DNA from: Alicyclobacillus tolerans
GTDB lineage: Bacteria > Bacillota > Bacilli > Alicyclobacillales > Alicyclobacillaceae
Reading direction: 5' to 3'
Assembly: GCF_001447355.1 (NCBI RefSeq)
Contig: NZ_JXBW01000008.1
Coordinates: 62,001-126,000, forward strand
DNA: 64,000 nt
In this document: positions 55,848 to 64,000 of the stretch, one piece after another
Layout: each line of letters opens with the position of its first letter
Position numbering within the stretch: the stretch's first letter is position 1
Notes under the pieces: generated by a model
Database searches by the model: none
What the model was told of the DNA's origin: nothing
Seen by the model: the letters and a program-made list of their open reading frames with translations, nothing else
Translations under genes and position numbers: made by a program

Positions 55848-55914
55848 TGACGGGCTGATGGTCGTCCATAACTCCATATGTAATGCAAGTTGTGGAACAA
55901 AGGAGGTTGCGGAC

Positions 55915-56253
55915 GTGTGTACAAAAGCGGATTGTGAGCGGTATATCGGAAAGATGGTTGGCTTTCGAACCAAATATGGGTATCACGTGGGATTTGTCGA
56001 ACGGGTTACCCAAGACTCAGCCATCATCCTTTCGCCACGCAAATATATCCCTACTGAGTTCGCCAGTGCCAATGTCAGTGATGACGAGTTGCAGAGGTTG
56101 GACCTGGCCCTAGCACAATGGGGAGGTGCTCCAGGAGCCGGATACGGCGGCTTTGGCGGAGGATATGGTGGCTGGGGGTGGGGTTGGGGCCGCTGGGCGG
56201 TTTCCTTCCTCATCATCTACGTCTTGTGGGGGCTGGCCGGCTGGTGGTGGTAA
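55915..56253 (+). CDS. Gly/Trp-rich membrane-associated protein (cassette copy 1)
   Basis: 112 residues from GTG 55915 behind AAAGGAGG. N-terminal globular part has two Cys (MCTKADCERYIGKMV), YGYHVGFVERV and AIILSPRKYIP, a small beta-barrel-like unit; then a Gly/Tyr/Trp-rich linker (about 76-95) and a C-terminal span GRWAVSFLIIYVLWGL ending GWWW. Paralogue of 59335-59667. Probably a spore coat or spore-membrane protein by analogy with Gly/Tyr-rich coat proteins; this is inference. Confidence 0.75.
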   Translation: MCTKADCERYIGKMVGFRTKYGYHVGFVERVTQDSAIILSPRKYIPTEFASANVSDDELQRLDLALAQWGGAPGAGYGGFGGGYGGWGWGWGRWAVSFLIIYVLWGLAGWWW

Positions 56254-57497: not shown

Positions 57498-58181
57498 TTA
57501 CGGCAGAGGCGGAGCCATGCTGCGCAACGACTTTTTGATGACTTCGGCGATTCGCGCATGTCCGGCATGATTTGGGTGAATTGGGCGACGAAAAGGTAAG
57601 GCCAGATCCTCGAACTTTCCATTGCGGTAACCTTCAATCAATTGATGTTCGCGGTTTTGAAATCCTGCGAACACGTCGCTGACCGTAAACCGGTACGCTT
57701 CGGCAAGCTTGCGTATCACGGTGTTTAGCCTATCAAAAGCGGCAACCGCAATCGGAAAATGTGGTATGGGGTTGTATACGGTGGTGACAATCACGTACGG
57801 AATGTTACGTTTGTAGATGAAATTACATAATAAGTTCATGTTGTAGGTGAATTCCGCGCTCACGCGATCGATGACGGCTGGGGTAATGGCTGGCCCCGAT
57901 ATTGGGAGATAGAAACGCCGTAACAGGCGTCGCAAGTCATTGCCACCTGTCATCAACGTGATCATATTTGTCTGTTTCCAAACCGCCTCACCGATAACGT
58001 TAACGGCTTTCCACAGATCTCCGCTCGTCCATCCGTTTTGGGCAACGATCATGGTATGGTCTGCAAGTCCCTGTTCGTGTGCAAATTGCGAGACCTGATA
58101 GACAAATGTCGCATGTGGATGGGGCGCACCGTACCCGGCGGTGATGGAGTCCCCGAGCGCAACGTATAGGTTTCGCTTCAT
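57498..58181 (-). CDS. SGNH/GDSL-family hydrolase
   Basis: 227 residues from ATG 58181 behind GAAGGGAG. Block I ALGDSITAGYGAPHP (Ser12), block II Gly50 in AQNGWTSGD, block III TGGND (Asn81), block V IHPNHAGH (His202); the Asp expected three residues before that His is Arg199. No signal peptide, so probably cytosolic or mother-cell made. Likely an esterase/lipase of the YpmR/TesA-like class. Transcribed with, and 48 bases upstream of, its degenerate paralogue. Confidence 0.88.
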   Translation of the reverse strand: MKRNLYVALGDSITAGYGAPHPHATFVYQVSQFAHEQGLADHTMIVAQNGWTSGDLWKAVNVIGEAVWKQTNMITLMTGGNDLRRLLRRFYLPISGPAITPAVIDRVSAEFTYNMNLLCNFIYKRNIPYVIVTTVYNPIPHFPIAVAAFDRLNTVIRKLAEAYRFTVSDVFAGFQNREHQLIEGYRNGKFEDLALPFRRPIHPNHAGHARIAEVIKKSLRSMAPPLP

Positions 58182-58224
58182 ATCGCTTCTCCCTTCAAGC
58201 CTGAAGCGTGTCATGCGAATGGGT

Positions 58225-58803
58225 TCAAGGCCTTCGCTTTCGTATTTGTGAATTGGGATATCGTGACGGGTTTGCAGGGACTGTTGGTCTTTGTTGCATC
58301 CACGGAAACGGGAATGGTTCGTTAAACCCTTTGGCAGGCGACTCCACTTGCCGCGGTTTACCGAACAGTTTCGGCACCAGCTTGCCCCCGCGCTGTCCCT
58401 TATGCGATCGCTTGGAGGCTTCTTCAATCATGCGACGCATCTGGGGATTTTCGCTTAGGAATTGCTGCACCCTTGGATCTCGCAGTAACTGTTTGATTTC
58501 GGCTTCGCTGGGTCCAGTCTTAAAGGGGCCTTTCAGACTTGGGACGGATCCGGAGCCTTTCAAAGCATCCTGGTCGGATAAGCGATTGGGGCTAAGCGGA
58601 CTTCCCAAACCATACGAAAACCCTTGTGTACCAGATGTGTTTGGGGTTCCAGCCATGGGATGCGACGGAACACCCGGCTCCATGGCCCCCCGCAGTTTTC
58701 GTATACCTGTCCACGCTCCTCGGGCTAGTAGATGGATGTTTGGATCCTGAACCATGTTCATCAGAACAGAGCCCCATCGAAATAGCATGCCAATGTTCAA
58801 CAT
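58225..58803 (-). CDS. Hypothetical protein upstream of SGNH pair
   Basis: 192 residues, start near 58803 behind GGAGG. N-terminal amphipathic segment (MLNIGMLFRWGSVLMNMVQ), a Gly/Pro/Ser-rich middle (about 40-95), a helical unit EIKQLLRDPRVQQFLSENPQMRRMIEEASKR (about 102-135; described, not a known domain) and a basic Pro-rich end. Same strand and 43 bases before the SGNH hydrolase, so part of its operon. No homologue recognised. Confidence 0.7.
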   Translation of the reverse strand: MLNIGMLFRWGSVLMNMVQDPNIHLLARGAWTGIRKLRGAMEPGVPSHPMAGTPNTSGTQGFSYGLGSPLSPNRLSDQDALKGSGSVPSLKGPFKTGPSEAEIKQLLRDPRVQQFLSENPQMRRMIEEASKRSHKGQRGGKLVPKLFGKPRQVESPAKGFNEPFPFPWMQQRPTVPANPSRYPNSQIRKRRP

Positions 58804-59154
58804 CATCACCTCCAGAACCTCAGAGTAGTGTATGATCCCCTTTTCTAACGAGCATCGGGTAAATGTGCAATAGAAAAATCAATATGCGCGTTACCAAGAC
58901 CTAGCGGCTGTGCGAATGCCTGTGCGGCAAATACCGATGCAAAAGGTTCATCGCACACATACTTGTACATCACGTCGTGAAACGAGGAGGCAAAAAGAAG
59001 CTTTGACTTTGCAGGCGCCCATTCGTAAGGCGCGGGCATGCCTATTTGCTGGCGTGGTGATGCGTGTACCTGGAAATGCGTTGCGGGCAAGATGATGCGT
59101 CAGGCTCGTGGTTACATTCGGATTTTATATTTTGCATGGCAGGAGGGAAGCAAC
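58804..59154. other. Divergent gap before cassette copy 2
   Basis: 351 bases between the leftward SGNH operon and the rightward cassette copy 2, so it should hold both promoters; no SigA boxes stand out, as expected for sporulation sigma factors. Frames on both strands lack ribosome sites. Confidence 0.35.
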
Positions 59155-59280
59155 ATGTATGATGGCGGTGCGCTCGGTGGCTACACTCGTTGGGCGGTTG
59201 TATTTCTCATTATCTTTGTACTCTTTATTTTGCTAGTGCCTTACTACACCACAACCTGCACGACAACGCCGGTTTACTAA
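59155..59280 (+). CDS. Tiny YjcZ-like membrane protein (cassette copy 2)
   Basis: 41 residues, MYDGGALGGYTRWAVVFLII then FVLFILLVPYY and TTTCTTTPVY. GCAGGAGGG precedes ATG 59155. Differs from copy 1 by an N-terminal DGG insertion and a few substitutions; the single span and terminal TTTPVY are retained. Gap to its partner is 54 bases. Confidence 0.78.
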   Translation: MYDGGALGGYTRWAVVFLIIFVLFILLVPYYTTTCTTTPVY

Positions 59281-59334
59281 TGGTGGATGACACGAAAGTC
59301 GCGTCGTGTGTTGCGTGAAGGGGAGGGCATCAGC

Positions 59335-59667
59335 ATGTGTTCGAGAGCAGAGTGTTTGCGCCACGTTGGACAATATGTGCGCTTTATGACACCCTACGGA
59401 TATCACGAGGGGATCATTGAGCGCGTGACAGGGGAGCAGGCCATTATCTTATCGCCAAGAAGGTACATTCCTCCGCAACTCGCCAGTGAAACGCTTGATC
59501 CAGATGAAGTTAAGCGTTTGGATATAGCATTGGCGTGGGGGGGATATGGGGCTGGTGGCTACCCCGGTTATGGCCGTGGCGGGTATGGAGCCGGTTACGG
59601 CTGGGGATGGGGCCGTTGGGCCGCATCGTTTTTGATCATCTATGTTCTGTGGGGCCTGTGGTGGTAA
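59335..59667 (+). CDS. Gly/Trp-rich membrane-associated protein (cassette copy 2)
   Basis: 110 residues from ATG 59335 behind GAAGGGGAGG. Same plan as copy 1: MCSRAECLRHVGQYV with two Cys, YGYHEGIIERV, AIILSPRRYIPP, a Gly/Tyr-rich run (about 72-93) and span GRWAASFLIIYVLWGLWW. The globular part diverges more than the motifs, so both copies appear maintained. No function known. Confidence 0.78.
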   Translation: MCSRAECLRHVGQYVRFMTPYGYHEGIIERVTGEQAIILSPRRYIPPQLASETLDPDEVKRLDIALAWGGYGAGGYPGYGRGGYGAGYGWGWGRWAASFLIIYVLWGLWW

Positions 59668-59693
59668 CGTGTGTCTCTACCTAAGGGGAAAAT

Positions 59694-59737
59694 GAGTTAC
59701 TCTCAGTAACTGGGTGAGTTACTCTCAGTAACTGGGT
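59694..59737. repeat. Two perfect tandem 22-bp repeats, each with a dyad
   Basis: GAGTTACTCTCAGTAACTGGGT occurs at 59694-59715 and again at 59716-59737 (given here as positions plus core AGTTAC-TCTCA-GTAACT, a 6-bp inverted repeat in each copy). A partial GTGAGTT continues after. Located 27 bases past the cassette stop. Confidence 0.85.
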
Positions 59738-60013
59738 ATTAGTGAGTTCTAACCACATTAATTCCAGCTTTGTTGGCCAAAACTTCCGCAGGACTCTTGC
59801 AAAACGTATTTGCTGGTGTGTCAAGATCGATCACGAACGAGCCTTGTTCATTTAATCGAGCGGCTGGTACGACAGCGGATGCAGAGCAGATTGCGAATCA
59901 CTTGGCCGTGTGTGCAATCTCCTTCGCCCGCTGTTTTTTGTTCCCAGGCTATCTACTGGACAAGGGTCTCGGCGGTGAAAAGTATTGCCTTGTGAGCGTG
60001 AATATAAATTTCG
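59738..60013. other. Unassigned stretch left of IS debris
   Basis: A plus-strand frame (59770-60021) has no ribosome site and runs into the IS-associated repeat, so it is not called as a gene. Possibly further transposon remnant. Confidence 0.35.
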
Positions 60014-60140
60014 TTCGATGAATGGCACTTGAGCATTCCGCCCTTGATTTGCCGTACGGAACAAGACTTCAGTTCGCCGTAAGCGTCAAATCGTACCCAT
60101 CTTGCATTCCTGTCAAAGTTGCACCAAATTCGCGCATGAC
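60014..60140. repeat. About 125-bp dispersed repeat, copy A
   Basis: About 90% alike by eye to 63119-63243, with one-base indels; core CCGTACGGAACAAGACTTCA is identical in both. On the minus strand it encodes a stretch reading WCNFDRNARWVRFDAYG. Lies immediately downstream of an IS66-type remnant, as in copy B. Confidence 0.8.
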
Positions 60141-60302
60141 TCGCAACCTCGCCAGAGAGCCGGCGGGTTCCGTCCGGCAGGTAGTTGGACCACGGTAGTA
60201 AGTCATCCATCGCCGTCCGTCATCAGTCTGGATGTTGGGCAGCCGCTCGAACAGTACTTCAGGTACAAATACGGGTCCAACCTGTTCTCTAGTCGTCTCC
60301 AC
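60141..60302 (-). pseudogene. IS66-type transposase (TnpC) C-terminal remnant
   Basis: Minus-strand frames give FVPEVLFERLPNIQTDD then, after a frame change, DDLLPWSNYLPDG, matching the IS66 TnpC C-terminal pattern LFERLPN...LLPW...LP. The rest of the transposase is missing. Non-functional fragment. Confidence 0.65.
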
Positions 60303-60411
60303 AAGGTGTCAATGGAGAATAGAGACGAAAGCCAATTGGCCATTGACATGTCAGATTGATGGCGTGGCTTTTTCATGATTGCGATGCCACGAGCAAGTCG
60401 TGGTCGAGTTG

Positions 60412-60512
60412 ACGCTTACAACGAATTTGTTGGAACGGCTGAATCGGGGAATTCGTAGGCGACGTGGTTGTCATCTTCCCGAACCGAGATTCCGCAATTC
60501 GCTCAACACCAC
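60412..60512 (+). pseudogene. IS256/Mutator transposase remnant (copy A)
   Basis: TTNLLERLNRGIRRR followed, after a one-base shift, by VVIFPNRDSAIR, the C-terminal signature of IS256-type transposases. Truncated on both sides; the paralogous remnant is at 63498-63668. Confidence 0.7.
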
Positions 60513-60521
60513 GAATTTCGT

Positions 60522-61157
60522 CTAAACACGTGAGTCGAACAACGTCGGCAACGCAGTCATATTATTTCTTACAAACGAGAAATTGTGGACCGCATGCAAG
60601 TCATGACCCAGATATACAGAGCACGTCCATTCCCCAGCAGGTACATCTTTAGTCAGACGTAAAGCGCAATGAGAGACAGCGCTTCCTGAGAAGCGTACTG
60701 GCTTAGAAGTTATCCAGTAAGGCTCGTTATTGTAACTCCATTCCACAAAGACAACGGCATTATGTGTCTTCTTATCCCAACTATGGATTTCAAACGACAA
60801 AATGACTATTGGATTCTCGTCACTAAATAATCTCGTTTCCCCTGCTGCGTAACCTAATTGATCAACCCTTGAACAAATCGTGGAGTAAATTGAGACTCCA
60901 TGGTTTGTATCGATAGTACGCTCAACGGTTGCGAATACGTCATTCCGCAAGGCAACATAAACAGATGTCAATGGATCACTCAACAAAAATCTTTGGTTGA
61001 CAATTAGTAAATAGAATTTATACTCATTTGGTTCATCAACCCAATAGCAATCATTATCAGTGTTGTAAGTAGTATCACGTGTATCCATTCTGTCAAACAC
61101 ATCAAAAGCAACGTGAAGTGAATTCACACGGCGTAGATGAGGGATAGTGATATACAT
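60522..61157 (-). CDS. Hypothetical protein beside FHQTNHD peptide gene
   Basis: 211 residues, not recognised. No signal peptide or membrane span. Sequence pattern of alternating beta strands with many aromatic residues (YKFYLLIVNQRFLL, VILSFEIHSWDKK, AVVFVEWSYNNEPYW, GEWTCSVYLGHDL) suggests an immunoglobulin-like beta sandwich. AGAGGTG lies about 11 bases before the ATG. AT-rich relative to the core genome. Two bases downstream of the 70-residue membrane protein, so likely co-transcribed with it. Confidence 0.65.
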   Translation of the reverse strand: MYITIPHLRRVNSLHVAFDVFDRMDTRDTTYNTDNDCYWVDEPNEYKFYLLIVNQRFLLSDPLTSVYVALRNDVFATVERTIDTNHGVSIYSTICSRVDQLGYAAGETRLFSDENPIVILSFEIHSWDKKTHNAVVFVEWSYNNEPYWITSKPVRFSGSAVSHCALRLTKDVPAGEWTCSVYLGHDLHAVHNFSFVRNNMTALPTLFDSRV

Positions 61158-61159
61158 GC

Positions 61160-61372
61160 CTAAAAAAACACCTCTATAATGGTGTGGATTTCGAGAAAGA
61201 TTCCAACAGCCAGCATAGAATATTTCATAGATCTGAATGCGTCTTCACGAGAACGACGAAAAACCTTGACTAGTATCCAAGTCATTAATTGAGTCATCAG
61301 CATGCACATAAAAAGTATTACTAAAGTAAGAATTAAAAAATGAGGTATCTTATTCATGTCTTTGCTGCTCAC
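61160..61372 (-). CDS. Small two-helix membrane protein
   Basis: 70 residues: span 1 HFLILTLVILFMCMLMTQLM, a basic loop KVFRRSREDAFRS, and span 2 YSMLAVGIFLEIHTIIEVFF. GTG 61372 or ATG 61357. Size and two-span topology resemble small immunity or holin-like proteins, but no family is recognised. Lies 39 bases downstream of the FHQTNHD peptide gene on the same strand. Confidence 0.6.
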   Translation of the reverse strand: MSSKDMNKIPHFLILTLVILFMCMLMTQLMTWILVKVFRRSREDAFRSMKYSMLAVGIFLEIHTIIEVFF

Positions 61373-61411
61373 CTATCTTTTTGTTTATGAATGGGGGCAC
61401 TTGGCTGATTA

Positions 61412-61726
61412 TTAATTTTTCCACCAGCCCATATTCTGACCAAAATGATCAACGAAATCCGCTACGTATCCAACCGCGGCACCACCAATTGCAGCTCCTG
61501 CTATCTCTGGCGCAGCGGCACCAATCACCCCTGCTCCAATTCTAACAGCAGCTCCGGCTCCACCCTCAATTACGGCAGAAGCAAATACGCCTTCCTCAGA
61601 GGCACCTCTAACGACACTAGTTGCCTTAGAAACAGATGCGATTCCTGCGCCTATTCGACTAGCAACATTAACGGTATCGTGATTAGTTTGATGAAATGCG
61701 TTTACAAGACTGTTCCATAGGCTCAT
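61412..61726 (-). CDS. Small Ala/Gly-rich FHQTNHD-motif protein (copy 1), bacteriocin-like
   Basis: 104 residues. N-terminus MSLWNSLVNAFHQTNHDTVN is shared with the partial gene at 63824 (18 of the first 25 residues identical). The rest is Ala/Gly/Val/Ile-rich with GxxxG/AxxxA spacing (AGAAVRIGAGVIGAAAPEIA, AGAAIGGAAVGYVADFV) and ends NMGWWKN, a profile of pore-forming bacteriocins or small holin/toxin peptides. GGGGTGG precedes the ATG and a promoter is visible. No known family; toxin role is inference. Confidence 0.65.
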   Translation of the reverse strand: MSLWNSLVNAFHQTNHDTVNVASRIGAGIASVSKATSVVRGASEEGVFASAVIEGGAGAAVRIGAGVIGAAAPEIAGAAIGGAAVGYVADFVDHFGQNMGWWKN

Positions 61727-61771
61727 AATCTCACGCCACCCCGGAAATCATCTTAAGTGCCCCCTAAAAAT

Positions 61772-61799
61772 AGTATAAATTAAACCAATATATGGTCAA
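61772..61799 (-). promoter_or_regulatory. Putative promoter of FHQTNHD gene copy 1
   Basis: Minus strand TTGACC (61799-61794), 16-bp spacer, TATACT (61777-61772), about 45 bases before the ATG. Confidence 0.5.
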
Positions 61800-62094
61800 G
61801 TTCAAATTTGTGTGTAAATTGCGTCTACATGTAGAATTTGCTGTGTTTCGACGTGCCGCCTTTGACGGCTTTGCTTCGGAAAATCAAATATGTCCGTCGT
61901 CATCACCATCAAGAGGGGCTTCGCCGGTCGTTGATAAGGAACGAAGGGGCAAAGCTTTCACCTGCGGTGTTCACCGCACCACAGCTCCTCCCGTTATCCC
62001 CGCAGCGTGTGCGCCTTTGCGGTTTGCGCGGATGCTGCTTGCTGTTCTCTCCATACCCAATACGCCTCTATATCGAGATATGGTGTTAGGCTTA
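61800..62094. other. Gene-free stretch left of the IS3 element
   Basis: Short plus-strand frames lack ribosome sites. Contains a GCGGTG-TT-CACCGC palindrome near 61953. Composition changes from AT-rich to GC-rich near 61850, a likely rearrangement boundary. Confidence 0.35.
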
Positions 62095-63097
62095 AATGGT
62101 GGACACAACGAACTGAGAATGTGAAAATAAGTAAATCGATTCGAGGTGTCTACATATGGCGAATAAGTATGACAACGATTTTAAGCTGAACACAGTCAAG
62201 CTGGTTCTGGAGGAGGGGCGAGTAGCGTCCCAGGTAGCGCGTGATCTCGGTATTTCCGAGAAGACGCTGTACGGGTGGATTGCTAGATACAAGGACGATC
62301 CGAATAACCCATTTGTGGGCAGTGGAAACTTAAAACCGGAAGCCAAGGCGGCGCGCGATTTGGAGCGCGAGAACCGTGAGTTGAGGGAGGAGAATGAGAT
62401 CTTAAAAAAGCGCTGCGCATCTTCAGCAAGGACCGGAAGTAAGGTACCAGTTCATCTATGAACACCGCGCTTCGAGTTTTCGGTTCAGAGGATGTGCAAA
62501 GTGCTTCAGGTTTATCGAAGCGGCTACTATGCATGGCTGAAGCGTCCGGATAGCGCGCGTAAGCAATGGCGACGCAAAGTCACACAGCGCATTCATGCAA
62601 TCTTTCTATCCTCTCGGCGCTTGTACGGGAGTCCAAAGATTACTCAAATACTGCGTCATGAAGGCATACGGGTGAGCCAGAAAACGGTCGCCCAGATCAT
62701 GTGCGAATGCGGATTGAAGAGCCGTACAGTGCGCAAATACAAGGCGACGACGAACTCGAAACACAATCATCCAGTGCACGAGAATGTACTCAATCAGACG
62801 TTTCGAGCACAGCGTCCCAATCAGGTTTGGATGTCGGACATTACGTATGTCTGGACCGAGGAGGGATGGTTATACGTGGCCAGTGTCATGGATTTGTATA
62901 CCCGCAAAATCGTTGGATGGAAAGCTGGAGCGAGGATGACCAAGGATCTCGTCATGGATGCGTTGGAGCAAGCTTATCAACGGGAGAAGCCTGCAGCCGG
63001 CGTATTACCAGATGCTGTCGAGAAACACCGCATAGCTACGGTGAGAGTTTCGTATGTGGAATCTTCAGAAATTCTCTGTTTGGGGTGTCCACTTTCT
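62095..63097 (+). mobile_element. Degenerate IS3-family element (IS150/IS3 type)
   Basis: Terminal inverted repeats share GTGGACAC (62099-62106) and GTGTCCAC (63085-63092). Contains an orfA-like and an orfB-like frame, both damaged. The element is shorter than usual because the end of the integrase domain is missing. It sits between the two FHQTNHD gene copies. Confidence 0.75.
62156..62461 (+). pseudogene. IS3 orfA, frame-shifted near its end
   Basis: Helix-turn-helix and leucine-zipper protein: NTVKLVLEEGRVASQVARDL, LGISEKTLYGWIARYK, then ERENRELREENEILKK. After an A6G run the frame reads RCASSART..., whereas the -1 frame reads KKALRIFSKDRK and stops, which is the family's normal orfA end. 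The A6G could be the programmed frameshift site or a lost base. Confidence 0.75.
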
Positions 63098-63100
63098 TGA
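62492..63100 (+). pseudogene. IS3 orfB (DDE transposase), C-terminally lost
   Basis: HTH_21 and rve regions: VLQVYRSGYYAWLKRP, LYGSPKITQILRHEGIRVSQ, QVWMSDITYVWTEEGWLY (first Asp), VMDLYTRKIVGWK (second Asp region). After YQREKPAAGV the frame leaves the family: the HSDRGSQY block, the third catalytic acid and the C-terminus are absent. The true N-terminus (YQFIYEHRASF) is in another frame upstream. Inactive. Confidence 0.8.
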
Positions 63101-63118
63101 CTTAATACCAAATTTTAT

Positions 63119-63243
63119 TTCGATGAATGGCAATTGAGCATTCCACCTTGATTTGCCGTACGGAACAAGACTTCAGTTCGCCGTAGGCGTCACATCGTAC
63201 CCATCTTGCATTCCTTTCAAAGTTACACCAAACTCGTTCATGA
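63119..63243. repeat. About 125-bp dispersed repeat, copy B
   Basis: Counterpart of 60014-60140 (see there); begins 22 bases past the IS3 right end. On the minus strand it is read as the tail of the IS66 TnpA-like frame (WCNFERNARWVRCDAYG). Confidence 0.8.
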
Positions 63244-63413
63244 TGACGATTTCTCTTGTTGTTCGGCCCGAAACTTGCAACCCAGTACCAAAGCCGACTT
63301 TCGGTGACCTGATTCTCGGCGCACCATTTCGCGGCGATGAGCCCACTGGCACGAAATGCTGCCACCCGTGCCTGCCATGATTCTCTCAAACTGGCCCGTT
63401 CTGCGCTTGACAC
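63244..63413 (-). pseudogene. IS66 accessory protein TnpA, 5' fragment
   Basis: GTG 63413 behind GGGAGGG, then ESWQARVAAFRASGLIAAKW CAENQV and SRLWYWVASF, the N-terminal helix-turn-helix pattern of IS66 orf1 (TnpA). The frame then runs into repeat copy B and stops at 63102. tnpB and tnpC are absent, so this is a fragment fused to unrelated sequence. Confidence 0.65.
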
Positions 63414-63473
63414 AATGATTCCCTCCCTGGTTGATCATGGGGGAATCATCTCAGAAATCTACGTTTTAAGCGA

Positions 63474-63497
63474 GGTGTGCGCTATTTTACGCACACC
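63474..63497. repeat. Perfect 8-bp inverted repeat at IS junction
   Basis: GGTGTGCG-CTATTTTA-CGCACACC, exactly at the boundary between the IS66-side sequence and the IS256 remnant. Could be an old transposon end or a hairpin at a recombination point. Confidence 0.7.
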
Positions 63498-63668
63498 ATC
63501 TTCCCGAACCGCGAATCAGCCATTCGCCTGATCGGCGCTCTACTCATGGTGATAGACGAAGCATGGACAACGGGGCACAAATATCTCGACATGAAGGACT
63601 ACTTGGTGTGGCGTGAAGAACAACAGAAACGGGCAAATCAGGGCTCAAAGATCAGCGAGATAAGTTGA
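63498..63668 (+). pseudogene. IS256/Mutator transposase C-terminal remnant (copy B)
   Basis: IFPNRESAIRLIGALLMVID and EAWTTGHKYLDMKDY match the C-terminus of IS256-family transposases. About 57 residues remain, ending at TGA 63666-63668. The upstream catalytic part is absent. Confidence 0.8.
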
Positions 63669-63738
63669 CATAATTCCATATCTACTTGGGGGCGAATTTA
63701 CACCACATTTAGGACTTGATCATCTTTCAGCAGCCCTA

Positions 63739-63767
63739 TTTACATTATGTTTACACAATGGTATATT
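63739..63767 (+). promoter_or_regulatory. Putative promoter of FHQTNHD gene copy 2
   Basis: TTTACA (63739-63744), 17-bp spacer, TATATT (63762-63767), 56 bases before the GTG start. Confidence 0.55.
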
Positions 63768-63823
63768 ATGTATTAGAACGTAAATATCAACAAAACAATC
63801 TTTATGAATGGAGTTGAAAAAAC

Positions 63824-64000
63824 GTGAGTTGGTGGAGTTCCGCAGTAAAGGCATTTCATCAAACGAATCATGATGCTGTAAGTGTTGCAAGTGGTATTGC
63901 CGCTGCTGTTACGGGTGGCGGGAAAATGGCGAGTTCCATTAATGCAGCAAGAAACGCAGGCGTCTTTGATGCTGTCGCAATTGACGGTGGCGCCGTTGCA
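63824..64000 (+). CDS. FHQTNHD-motif small protein (copy 2), cut by window end
   Basis: First 59 residues from GTG 63824 (GGAG ten bases upstream): MSWWSSAVKAFHQTNHDAVS then Ala/Gly/Ser-rich sequence with GVFDAVAIDGGAVA, aligning with GVFASAVIEGGAGAA of copy 1. Orientation is opposite to copy 1. The 3' end lies beyond the window. Same inferred role: a small membrane-active or secreted peptide. Confidence 0.65.
   Translation, partial: MSWWSSAVKAFHQTNHDAVSVASGIAAAVTGGGKMASSINAARNAGVFDAVAIDGGAVA

What the first reader, a model, noticed from the sequence alone, without database searches (positions are those of the whole stretch)
61412..64000. Inverted pair of FHQTNHD Ala/Gly-rich peptide genes
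Two small genes in opposite orientations share an N-terminal block MSxWxSxVxAFHQTNHD and an Ala/Gly-rich hydrophobic body. Each has its own promoter, lies in AT-rich accessory DNA and is next to IS debris. The profile suggests a new bacteriocin-like or membrane-active toxin family. The conserved head may be a leader or targeting sequence.
Basis: partly seen in the sequence, partly recalled or inferred. Interest (0 to 1): 0.75.

Follow-up and report, generated by a model that had tools for sequence, protein, structure and literature searches.

The report
Mobile three-gene membrane-protein cassette
Two unlike copies of a rare mobile three-gene cassette, built round a small membrane-loving protein that matched no family model searched, sit head to head in one bacterial genome; it looks like a toxin with its protection genes, but no activity has been tested.

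Summary
Two genes of one family (copy 1: 61726-61412, 104 aa; copy 2: from 63824, 99 aa, ending past the window) point away from each other across IS debris, 57% identical. A is Gly/Ala-rich with conserved ends (FxxTNxD; DFxDHxGQNxGWW). B is a 60-70 aa membrane protein. C (~211 aa) is soluble, all-beta, with an Ig-like C-terminal half. The pair is not an inverted duplication: copy 2 is closer to Sulfoacidibacillus thermotolerans (81/73/68% for A/B/C) than to copy 1 (57/22/32%). In S. thermotolerans the cassette sits between an integrase at tRNA-Pro and a rolling-circle Rep-helicase, at two places. A 70%-identical Rep elsewhere has no cassette beside it, so A-B-C looks like cargo. Two other genomes hold a broken A and an open B. 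A matched no phage record and no viral contig; no family model explains A, B or C. Best reading: a mobile toxin-like module, A membrane-active, B and C protective (about 0.4). The 'leader' and 'glycine zipper' ideas failed tests.

The parts
61412..61726 (-). Gene A, copy 1: 104-aa Gly/Ala-rich protein MSLWNSLVNAFHQTNHD...DFVDHFGQNMGWWKN
61160..61372 (-). Gene B, copy 1: 70-aa membrane protein, 39 bases after A
60522..61157 (-). Gene C, copy 1: 211-aa soluble all-beta protein, Ig-like C-terminal half, 2 bases after B
63824..64000 (+). Gene A, copy 2 (5' part; 99 aa in all, continues to L004:7124); B2 at L004:7166-7348; C2 from L004:7356, broken after about residue 129 by transposase-like DNA
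61772..61799 (-). Promoter-like site of copy 1 (TTGACC-16-TATACT)
   Evidence: consensus match only
63739..63767 (+). Promoter-like site of copy 2 (TTTACA-17-TATATT)
   Evidence: consensus match only
63693..63721 (+). 29-base site, 28 of 29 identical to one just after the Rep gene of the S. thermotolerans element; read as an IS256-family terminal repeat (inference), not part of the cassette
62156..63100 (+). Transposase genes between the copies (62156-62461 and 62492-63100; IS3-type and shortened by recall)

Best explanation
A-B-C is a mobile accessory cassette that works like a toxin-immunity module. A is made without a recognisable signal or leader and binds or inserts in the membrane through its Ala/Gly/Val-rich segment, flanked by conserved amphipathic N- and C-terminal helices, and perturbs the membrane of its own cell or of non-carriers. 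B, a small membrane protein, protects in the membrane. C, a soluble beta-sandwich protein, holds A harmless in the cytoplasm. Shown: the genes, their order, purifying selection, mobile context, B hydrophobic, C Ig-like by model. Inferred: that A is toxic, and the protective roles of B and C.
For: A-B-C order at all five places found with an intact A: copies 1 and 2 of the window's genome (C broken in copy 2), two in S. thermotolerans, one in G025. In two distant genomes A is broken while B next to it is still open. dN/dS copy 2 versus S. thermotolerans is A 0.12, B 0.14, C 0.42 (ratios of the values; C over 128 residues). Cargo status: two near-identical places at tRNA-Pro with integrase and Rep, and a 70%-identical Rep in G042 with no A-B-C seen nearby and no C in that genome. 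Nominally amphipathic N-terminal (3 of 4) and C-terminal (4 of 4) segments, shuffle fraction below 0.05, uncorrected, segments chosen by me. The window's genome carries two unlike cassettes and a further C fragment at the start of contig C17, as diverging toxin-immunity types would. Known parallel: a membrane-depolarizing toxin with separate membrane and soluble immunity proteins (PMC12744356, passages read).
Against: No family model or fold supports toxicity. The model of A is unusable (pLDDT 40). The strict glycine-zipper motif is in 2 of 4 members and not above shuffles. A is acidic (net -2 to -6), unlike most bacteriocins (recalled). Its hydrophobic segment is borderline: top 19-residue mean 1.56-1.77. 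B's second membrane helix passes the threshold in only 2 of 4. The broken-A/open-B pair is poor support for immunity: B's 5 differences between the two genomes all change the amino acid, so B may be drifting too.
Confidence: 0.4

Rival explanations
1. A-B-C is an anti-phage or anti-mobile-element module (abortive-infection or toxin-antitoxin type): C senses, A/B damage the membrane of the infected cell. No secretion is needed.
For: Cargo of an integrating element with a rolling-circle-type Rep; no secretion signal or exporter recognised by eye; diverged types in one genome.
Against: PADLOC: 8 proteins tested, one weak match only (copy 2 A to part of PD-T4-7, E 0.013). No defence gene was recognised beside the cassettes.
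Confidence: 0.2
2. A-B-C serves the mobile element itself (membrane anchoring, stability, entry exclusion) and harms no cell.
For: Cassette between integrase and Rep in S. thermotolerans; B membrane-bound by hydropathy.
Against: A 70%-identical Rep in G042 has no cassette beside it. The window's genome holds cassettes though that Rep gives no match and that integrase only weak partial ones.
Confidence: 0.2
3. A is a small hydrophobic coat or membrane-vesicle protein and C a structural protein of an undescribed minimal virus.
For: Integrase plus rolling-circle-type Rep plus three small genes; hydrophobic Ala/Gly-rich A; all-beta C. Weak viral fold matches of C exist (7 at E <= 0.001), and Rep's helicase half matches phage helicase families.
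Against: No match to A in 50,697 phage records; no confirmed relative of A or C in viral contigs. For C, 78 phage records match at E 0.1 or worse, those listed on DNA polymerase genes or unannotated. Rep as a whole matches 3 plasmid and no phage records and no viral contig. The listed solved-structure matches of C are to Ig/FN3-like and carbohydrate-enzyme accessory domains.
Confidence: 0.08

Closest known systems
EsxX / TelE membrane-destabilizing T7SS effectors and their immunity proteins (PMC12744356, PMC10434224; passages read)
   Same: Membrane-seeking segment rich in small residues; neighbouring genes for membrane-bound and soluble proteins; orphan immunity genes reported for EsxX.
   Different: No LXG domain, no conserved glycine zipper, no secretion gene recognised beside it; C is all-beta rather than DUF5085 alpha/beta.
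Cdz glycine-zipper bacteriocins and class II bacteriocins (PMC5380434; abstract and passages read)
   Same: Small hydrophobic Gly/Ala-rich protein next to a small membrane protein.
   Different: No conserved double-glycine leader, no linked exporter recognised, no model match, acidic.
Geobacillin 26 / alicyclobacillin 24 (PMC13176240; abstract and passages read)
   Same: C is of like size (~24 kDa); alicyclobacillin comes from Alicyclobacillus, taken to be related (recalled).
   Different: Those have a Sec signal, an alpha-helical core and a predicted C-terminal TM helix; C is all-beta with no such segment.
Small plasmids with an SF1 helicase (Acetobacter, Sporosarcina records)
   Same: The carrier Rep shares the helicase half (25-26% identity).
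   Different: They match the helicase half only; the carrier also has an HUH-type half and an integrase, and bears A-B-C.

Membership tests
Class II (double-glycine leader) bacteriocins | match to a bacteriocin model | tested here: not met
   Pfam: A of copies 1 and 2; NCBIfam: all four intact A; none
Class II (double-glycine leader) bacteriocins | conserved GG cleavage site after a leader | tested here: not met
   GGG at 31-33 in 3 of 4 intact A, absent in copy 1 and in the broken relative
Class II (double-glycine leader) bacteriocins | C39 peptidase exporter | tested here: inconclusive
   none recognised by eye beside the cassettes; one unlinked C39 gene in the genome, contig C32
Glycine-zipper membrane toxins (EsxX, TelE, Cdz) | (G/A/S)xxxGxxxG or GxxxGxxx(G/S/T) conserved | tested here: not met
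   2 of 4 members, not above 2000 shuffles; motif as given in PMC12744356
T7SS LXG effectors | N-terminal LXG domain | tested here: not met
   A is 99-104 aa; no LXG match in Pfam for copies 1 and 2
Leaderless bacteriocins | short cationic peptide active as translated (definition recalled) | tested here: not met
   99-104 aa, net charge -2 to -6; activity not testable here
Geobacillin 26 family | Sec signal, alpha core, C-terminal TM helix | tested here: not met
   C is all-beta with no 19-residue window at 1.6 or above in 3 of 3; features from PMC13176240
Phage or virus structural proteins | sequence relative in phage or viral records | tested here: not met
   A: none; C: none, only E 0.1 or worse; PHROGs only weak
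Toxin-immunity pair | A toxic alone, neutralised by B or C | not testable with these tools
   needs expression tests
Ig-like / FN3-like beta-sandwich (gene C, about residues 86-198) | fold match above background | tested here: met
   Z 11.6, rmsd 2.3, 101 residues (5vi0_A); model pLDDT 68, pTM 0.52 from 3 sequences; a fold shows no function

The most novel reading that the evidence does not exclude
A-B-C is a new kind of mobile antagonism module: a leaderless, acidic, Ala/Gly-rich membrane toxin with aromatic amphipathic ends, neutralised both in the membrane (B) and in the cytoplasm by an Ig-fold protein (C), and spread as exchangeable, diverging types on an integrating element whose Rep joins an HUH-type nuclease to an SF1 helicase.
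Probability: 0.2. Interest if true: 0.65.

Novelty: new variant of a known kind. Interest (0 to 1): 0.42.

Why it matters
If A is a membrane toxin, this is a compact three-gene system with two protective proteins of unlike kinds, carried by an integrating rolling-circle-type element in relatives of the acidophile Sulfoacidibacillus (lifestyle recalled). One genome holding two unlike types and a further fragment makes cross-immunity directly testable. If A is not toxic, it is still a well-defined uncharacterised operon with a clear mobile carrier.

Tried and rejected
Inverted duplication: rejected, copy 2 is closer to S. thermotolerans than to copy 1.

Leader peptide with GG cleavage: rejected as a family feature.

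Glycine zipper: rejected.

Conserved 29-base site 63693-63721 as a replication origin: set aside. In S. thermotolerans it lies about 450 bases from the end of a Mutator-type transposase ORF (Transposase_mut, E 2.5e-104) and is read as that IS's end. This is inference from memory of IS256 ends: Pfam found nothing in the neighbouring window ORF 63477-63665, which I took by eye for a transposase end. A 20-of-29 look-alike upstream of copy 1 is inconclusive.

C17 fragment as the other half of copy 2's broken C: not favoured, 41-46% identity to the three full-length C proteins against 68% between copy 2 and S. thermotolerans in the first half. The second half of copy 2 is unknown and the assembly does not resolve the junction.

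Weak A hits dropped as noise: 27 of the 30 genomes with a match at E <= 1 (E 0.0046 or worse), G128 (E 2.0e-4, one stop inside) and G684 (E 0.004-0.009, long frames).

Viral fold matches of C and phage polymerase hits were not used as support: low TM-scores, or E 0.1 and worse. The SecE match of the B of G574 (E 8.2e-4, 19.2 bits against a cut-off of 27.55) was not used.

Structure of A: unusable. Rfam: no match in 58000-64000. Geobacillin 26 kinship of C: rejected. Paper searches showed no paper on this family among the rows listed; only part of two large hit lists was shown, the library holds open-licence PMC papers only, and no search used the A motif as a term.

Full report
What is there. 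The two genes are real and homologous. Copy 1 runs 61726-61412 on the minus strand (104 aa), and copy 2 starts at 63824 on the plus strand. The window is positions 62001-126000 of a 127,675-base contig, so copy 2 could be read to its stop: 99 aa. The two match at E = 9.0e-26 with 57% identity over the whole length; the only other match in that genome was E = 0.024, in a 397-codon frame.

Relatives. Among 101 genomes searched around the window's own, three have strong full-length matches to A: the window's genome, G025 (54%) and G044 (52%, two places). The 27 others at E <= 1 had E 0.0046 or worse and were dropped. With C as the query, 3 of 59 genomes of the order match, the same three. In the class draw A matched 3 of 299 (one weak, dropped) and C 2 of 299. 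In the phylum draw A matched 2 of 398, the window's genome and G574; a second phylum draw with the five-row profile gave 2 of 398, G574 and one weak match that I dropped. G574 and G725 carry a broken A, with in-frame stops, one near the start shared by both; it still shows the KTFHQTNKD head. Two of 37 genomes of that class have it. The draws overlap and cover a small part of known species, but the family looks rare and patchy.

Anatomy of A. Four intact members share 43 invariant columns of 104 at both ends and between: among them W4, A10, F11, T14, N15 and D17 in the head, and D90, F91, D93, H94, G96, Q97, N98, G100, W101, W102 and N104 in the tail. With the broken relative's stop-free piece F11, T14, N15 and D17 remain in the head. 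Gly plus Ala make up 36-40%, the net charge is -2 to -6, and the best 19-residue hydropathy window averages 1.56-1.77, a borderline membrane segment. The N-terminal stretch is nominally amphipathic in 3 of 4 members and the C-terminal one in 4 of 4 (shuffle fraction below 0.05, uncorrected); a strict glycine zipper is in 2 of 4 and not above shuffles. The structure model is unusable (pLDDT 40).

The operon. In copy 1 B follows A after 39 bases and C follows B after 2. The same order is in copy 2 (C broken), at both S. thermotolerans places and in G025. B has one clear membrane segment in 4 of 4 of these and a second that passes the threshold in 2 of 4. The B of G574 aligns to the B profile over 36 columns with 58.7% probability, so that link is tentative by sequence and rests also on position. 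C is modelled at pLDDT 68 as all-beta. About residues 86-198 match Ig/FN3-like domains at Z up to 11.6; the tool gives 7-8 as a typical best Z for models without a clear match. No family explains A, B or C: no Pfam or NCBIfam match reached its curated cut-off, the strongest being SecE for the B of G574 (E 8.2e-4), and PHROG and PADLOC matches were at E 0.013 or worse (not every member was put to every library). PDB sequence searches with the A and C profiles gave nothing below E 1.

Not an inverted duplication. Amino-acid identity of copy 2 to S. thermotolerans is 81, 73 and 68% for A, B and C (C over the 128 residues left). Copy 2 to copy 1 is 57, 22 and 32%. A further C fragment opens contig C17 and is only 41-46% identical to the three full-length C proteins, so the genome may have met the cassette three times. 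C of copy 2 is cut off by transposase-like DNA.

Carrier. In S. thermotolerans the cassette lies between a tyrosine integrase set right after tRNA-Pro and a 996-aa protein with a REP_ORF2-G2P-like half and an SF1 helicase half (PF23343 scored 27.0 against a cut-off of 27.8, so the HUH half is just under threshold). A 6,630-base stretch holding all of this is 99.985% identical at two places. Of 150 genomes searched with Rep, 3 match: G044, G042 (70% identity) and G004 (helicase part only, 32%). Round the G042 gene no A-B-C was seen and that genome has no C match, so A-B-C looks like exchangeable cargo. Rep matches 3 plasmid records over its helicase half, no phage record and no viral contig, though its helicase half matches phage helicase families. 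The window's genome shows no such Rep and only weak partial integrase matches.

Mechanism. I commit to a toxin-immunity-like module, about 0.4: A in the membrane, B protecting there, C holding A in the cytoplasm. The parallel is EsxX, for which separate membrane and soluble immunity proteins are described (PMC12744356, passages read); for TelE and Cdz I read passages too (Cdz abstract). Steps shown: operon, purifying selection, mobility. Steps inferred: toxicity and both protective roles. Against it: no motif or model of a known toxin, acidic charge, and the B of the two distant genomes showing 5 amino-acid-changing and 0 silent differences, so its being open there does not prove selection for immunity.

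Known relatives. It fails tests for double-glycine bacteriocins, glycine-zipper toxins, LXG effectors and the geobacillin 26 family (see Membership tests). The window's genome has a separate locus on contig C32 with a C39-domain gene and, by eye, a small double-glycine-like precursor: probably a conventional bacteriocin locus, from which A differs.

Noticed in passing
L058 (G000 contig C32), 144-377, 451-756, 1495-2967, 2834-3388: A likely conventional bacteriocin locus in the same genome: C39-domain gene and, by eye, a 77-aa precursor with a double-glycine-like leader, a 101-aa membrane protein (putative immunity) and the start of an HlyD-like protein; the C39 frame shows no ATPase part by eye.
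   Followed up: partly
L036:15952-18942 / L035:14947-17937: 996-aa Rep joining a REP_ORF2-G2P-like (HUH) half to an SF1 helicase, in an integrating element at tRNA-Pro, at two places in S. thermotolerans; the pairing recalls Helitron-type Reps (from memory).
   Followed up: partly
L036:15745-15853 and L055:4510-4617: Stretch of 109 bases just upstream of Rep, 82% identical between two genomes and outside the Rep gene; possible replication origin.
   Followed up: no
window 60014-60139 and 63119-63243: Direct repeat, 92% identical over 126 bases, on either side of copy 1; read as remnants of an IS66-type element (recalled; Pfam found nothing in the ORF at 63105-63413).
   Followed up: partly
window 55858-56253 and 59287-59667: Two related 131- and 126-aa proteins with a Gly-rich stretch and a like hydrophobic tail (RWAxSFLIIYVLWGL), flanking two tandem GDSL lipase genes.
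   Followed up: no
L049 and L050 (G574, G725): Broken A genes with in-frame stops, in a stretch 95% alike at DNA level between two genomes, each beside a transposase-like fragment (recalled).
   Followed up: partly
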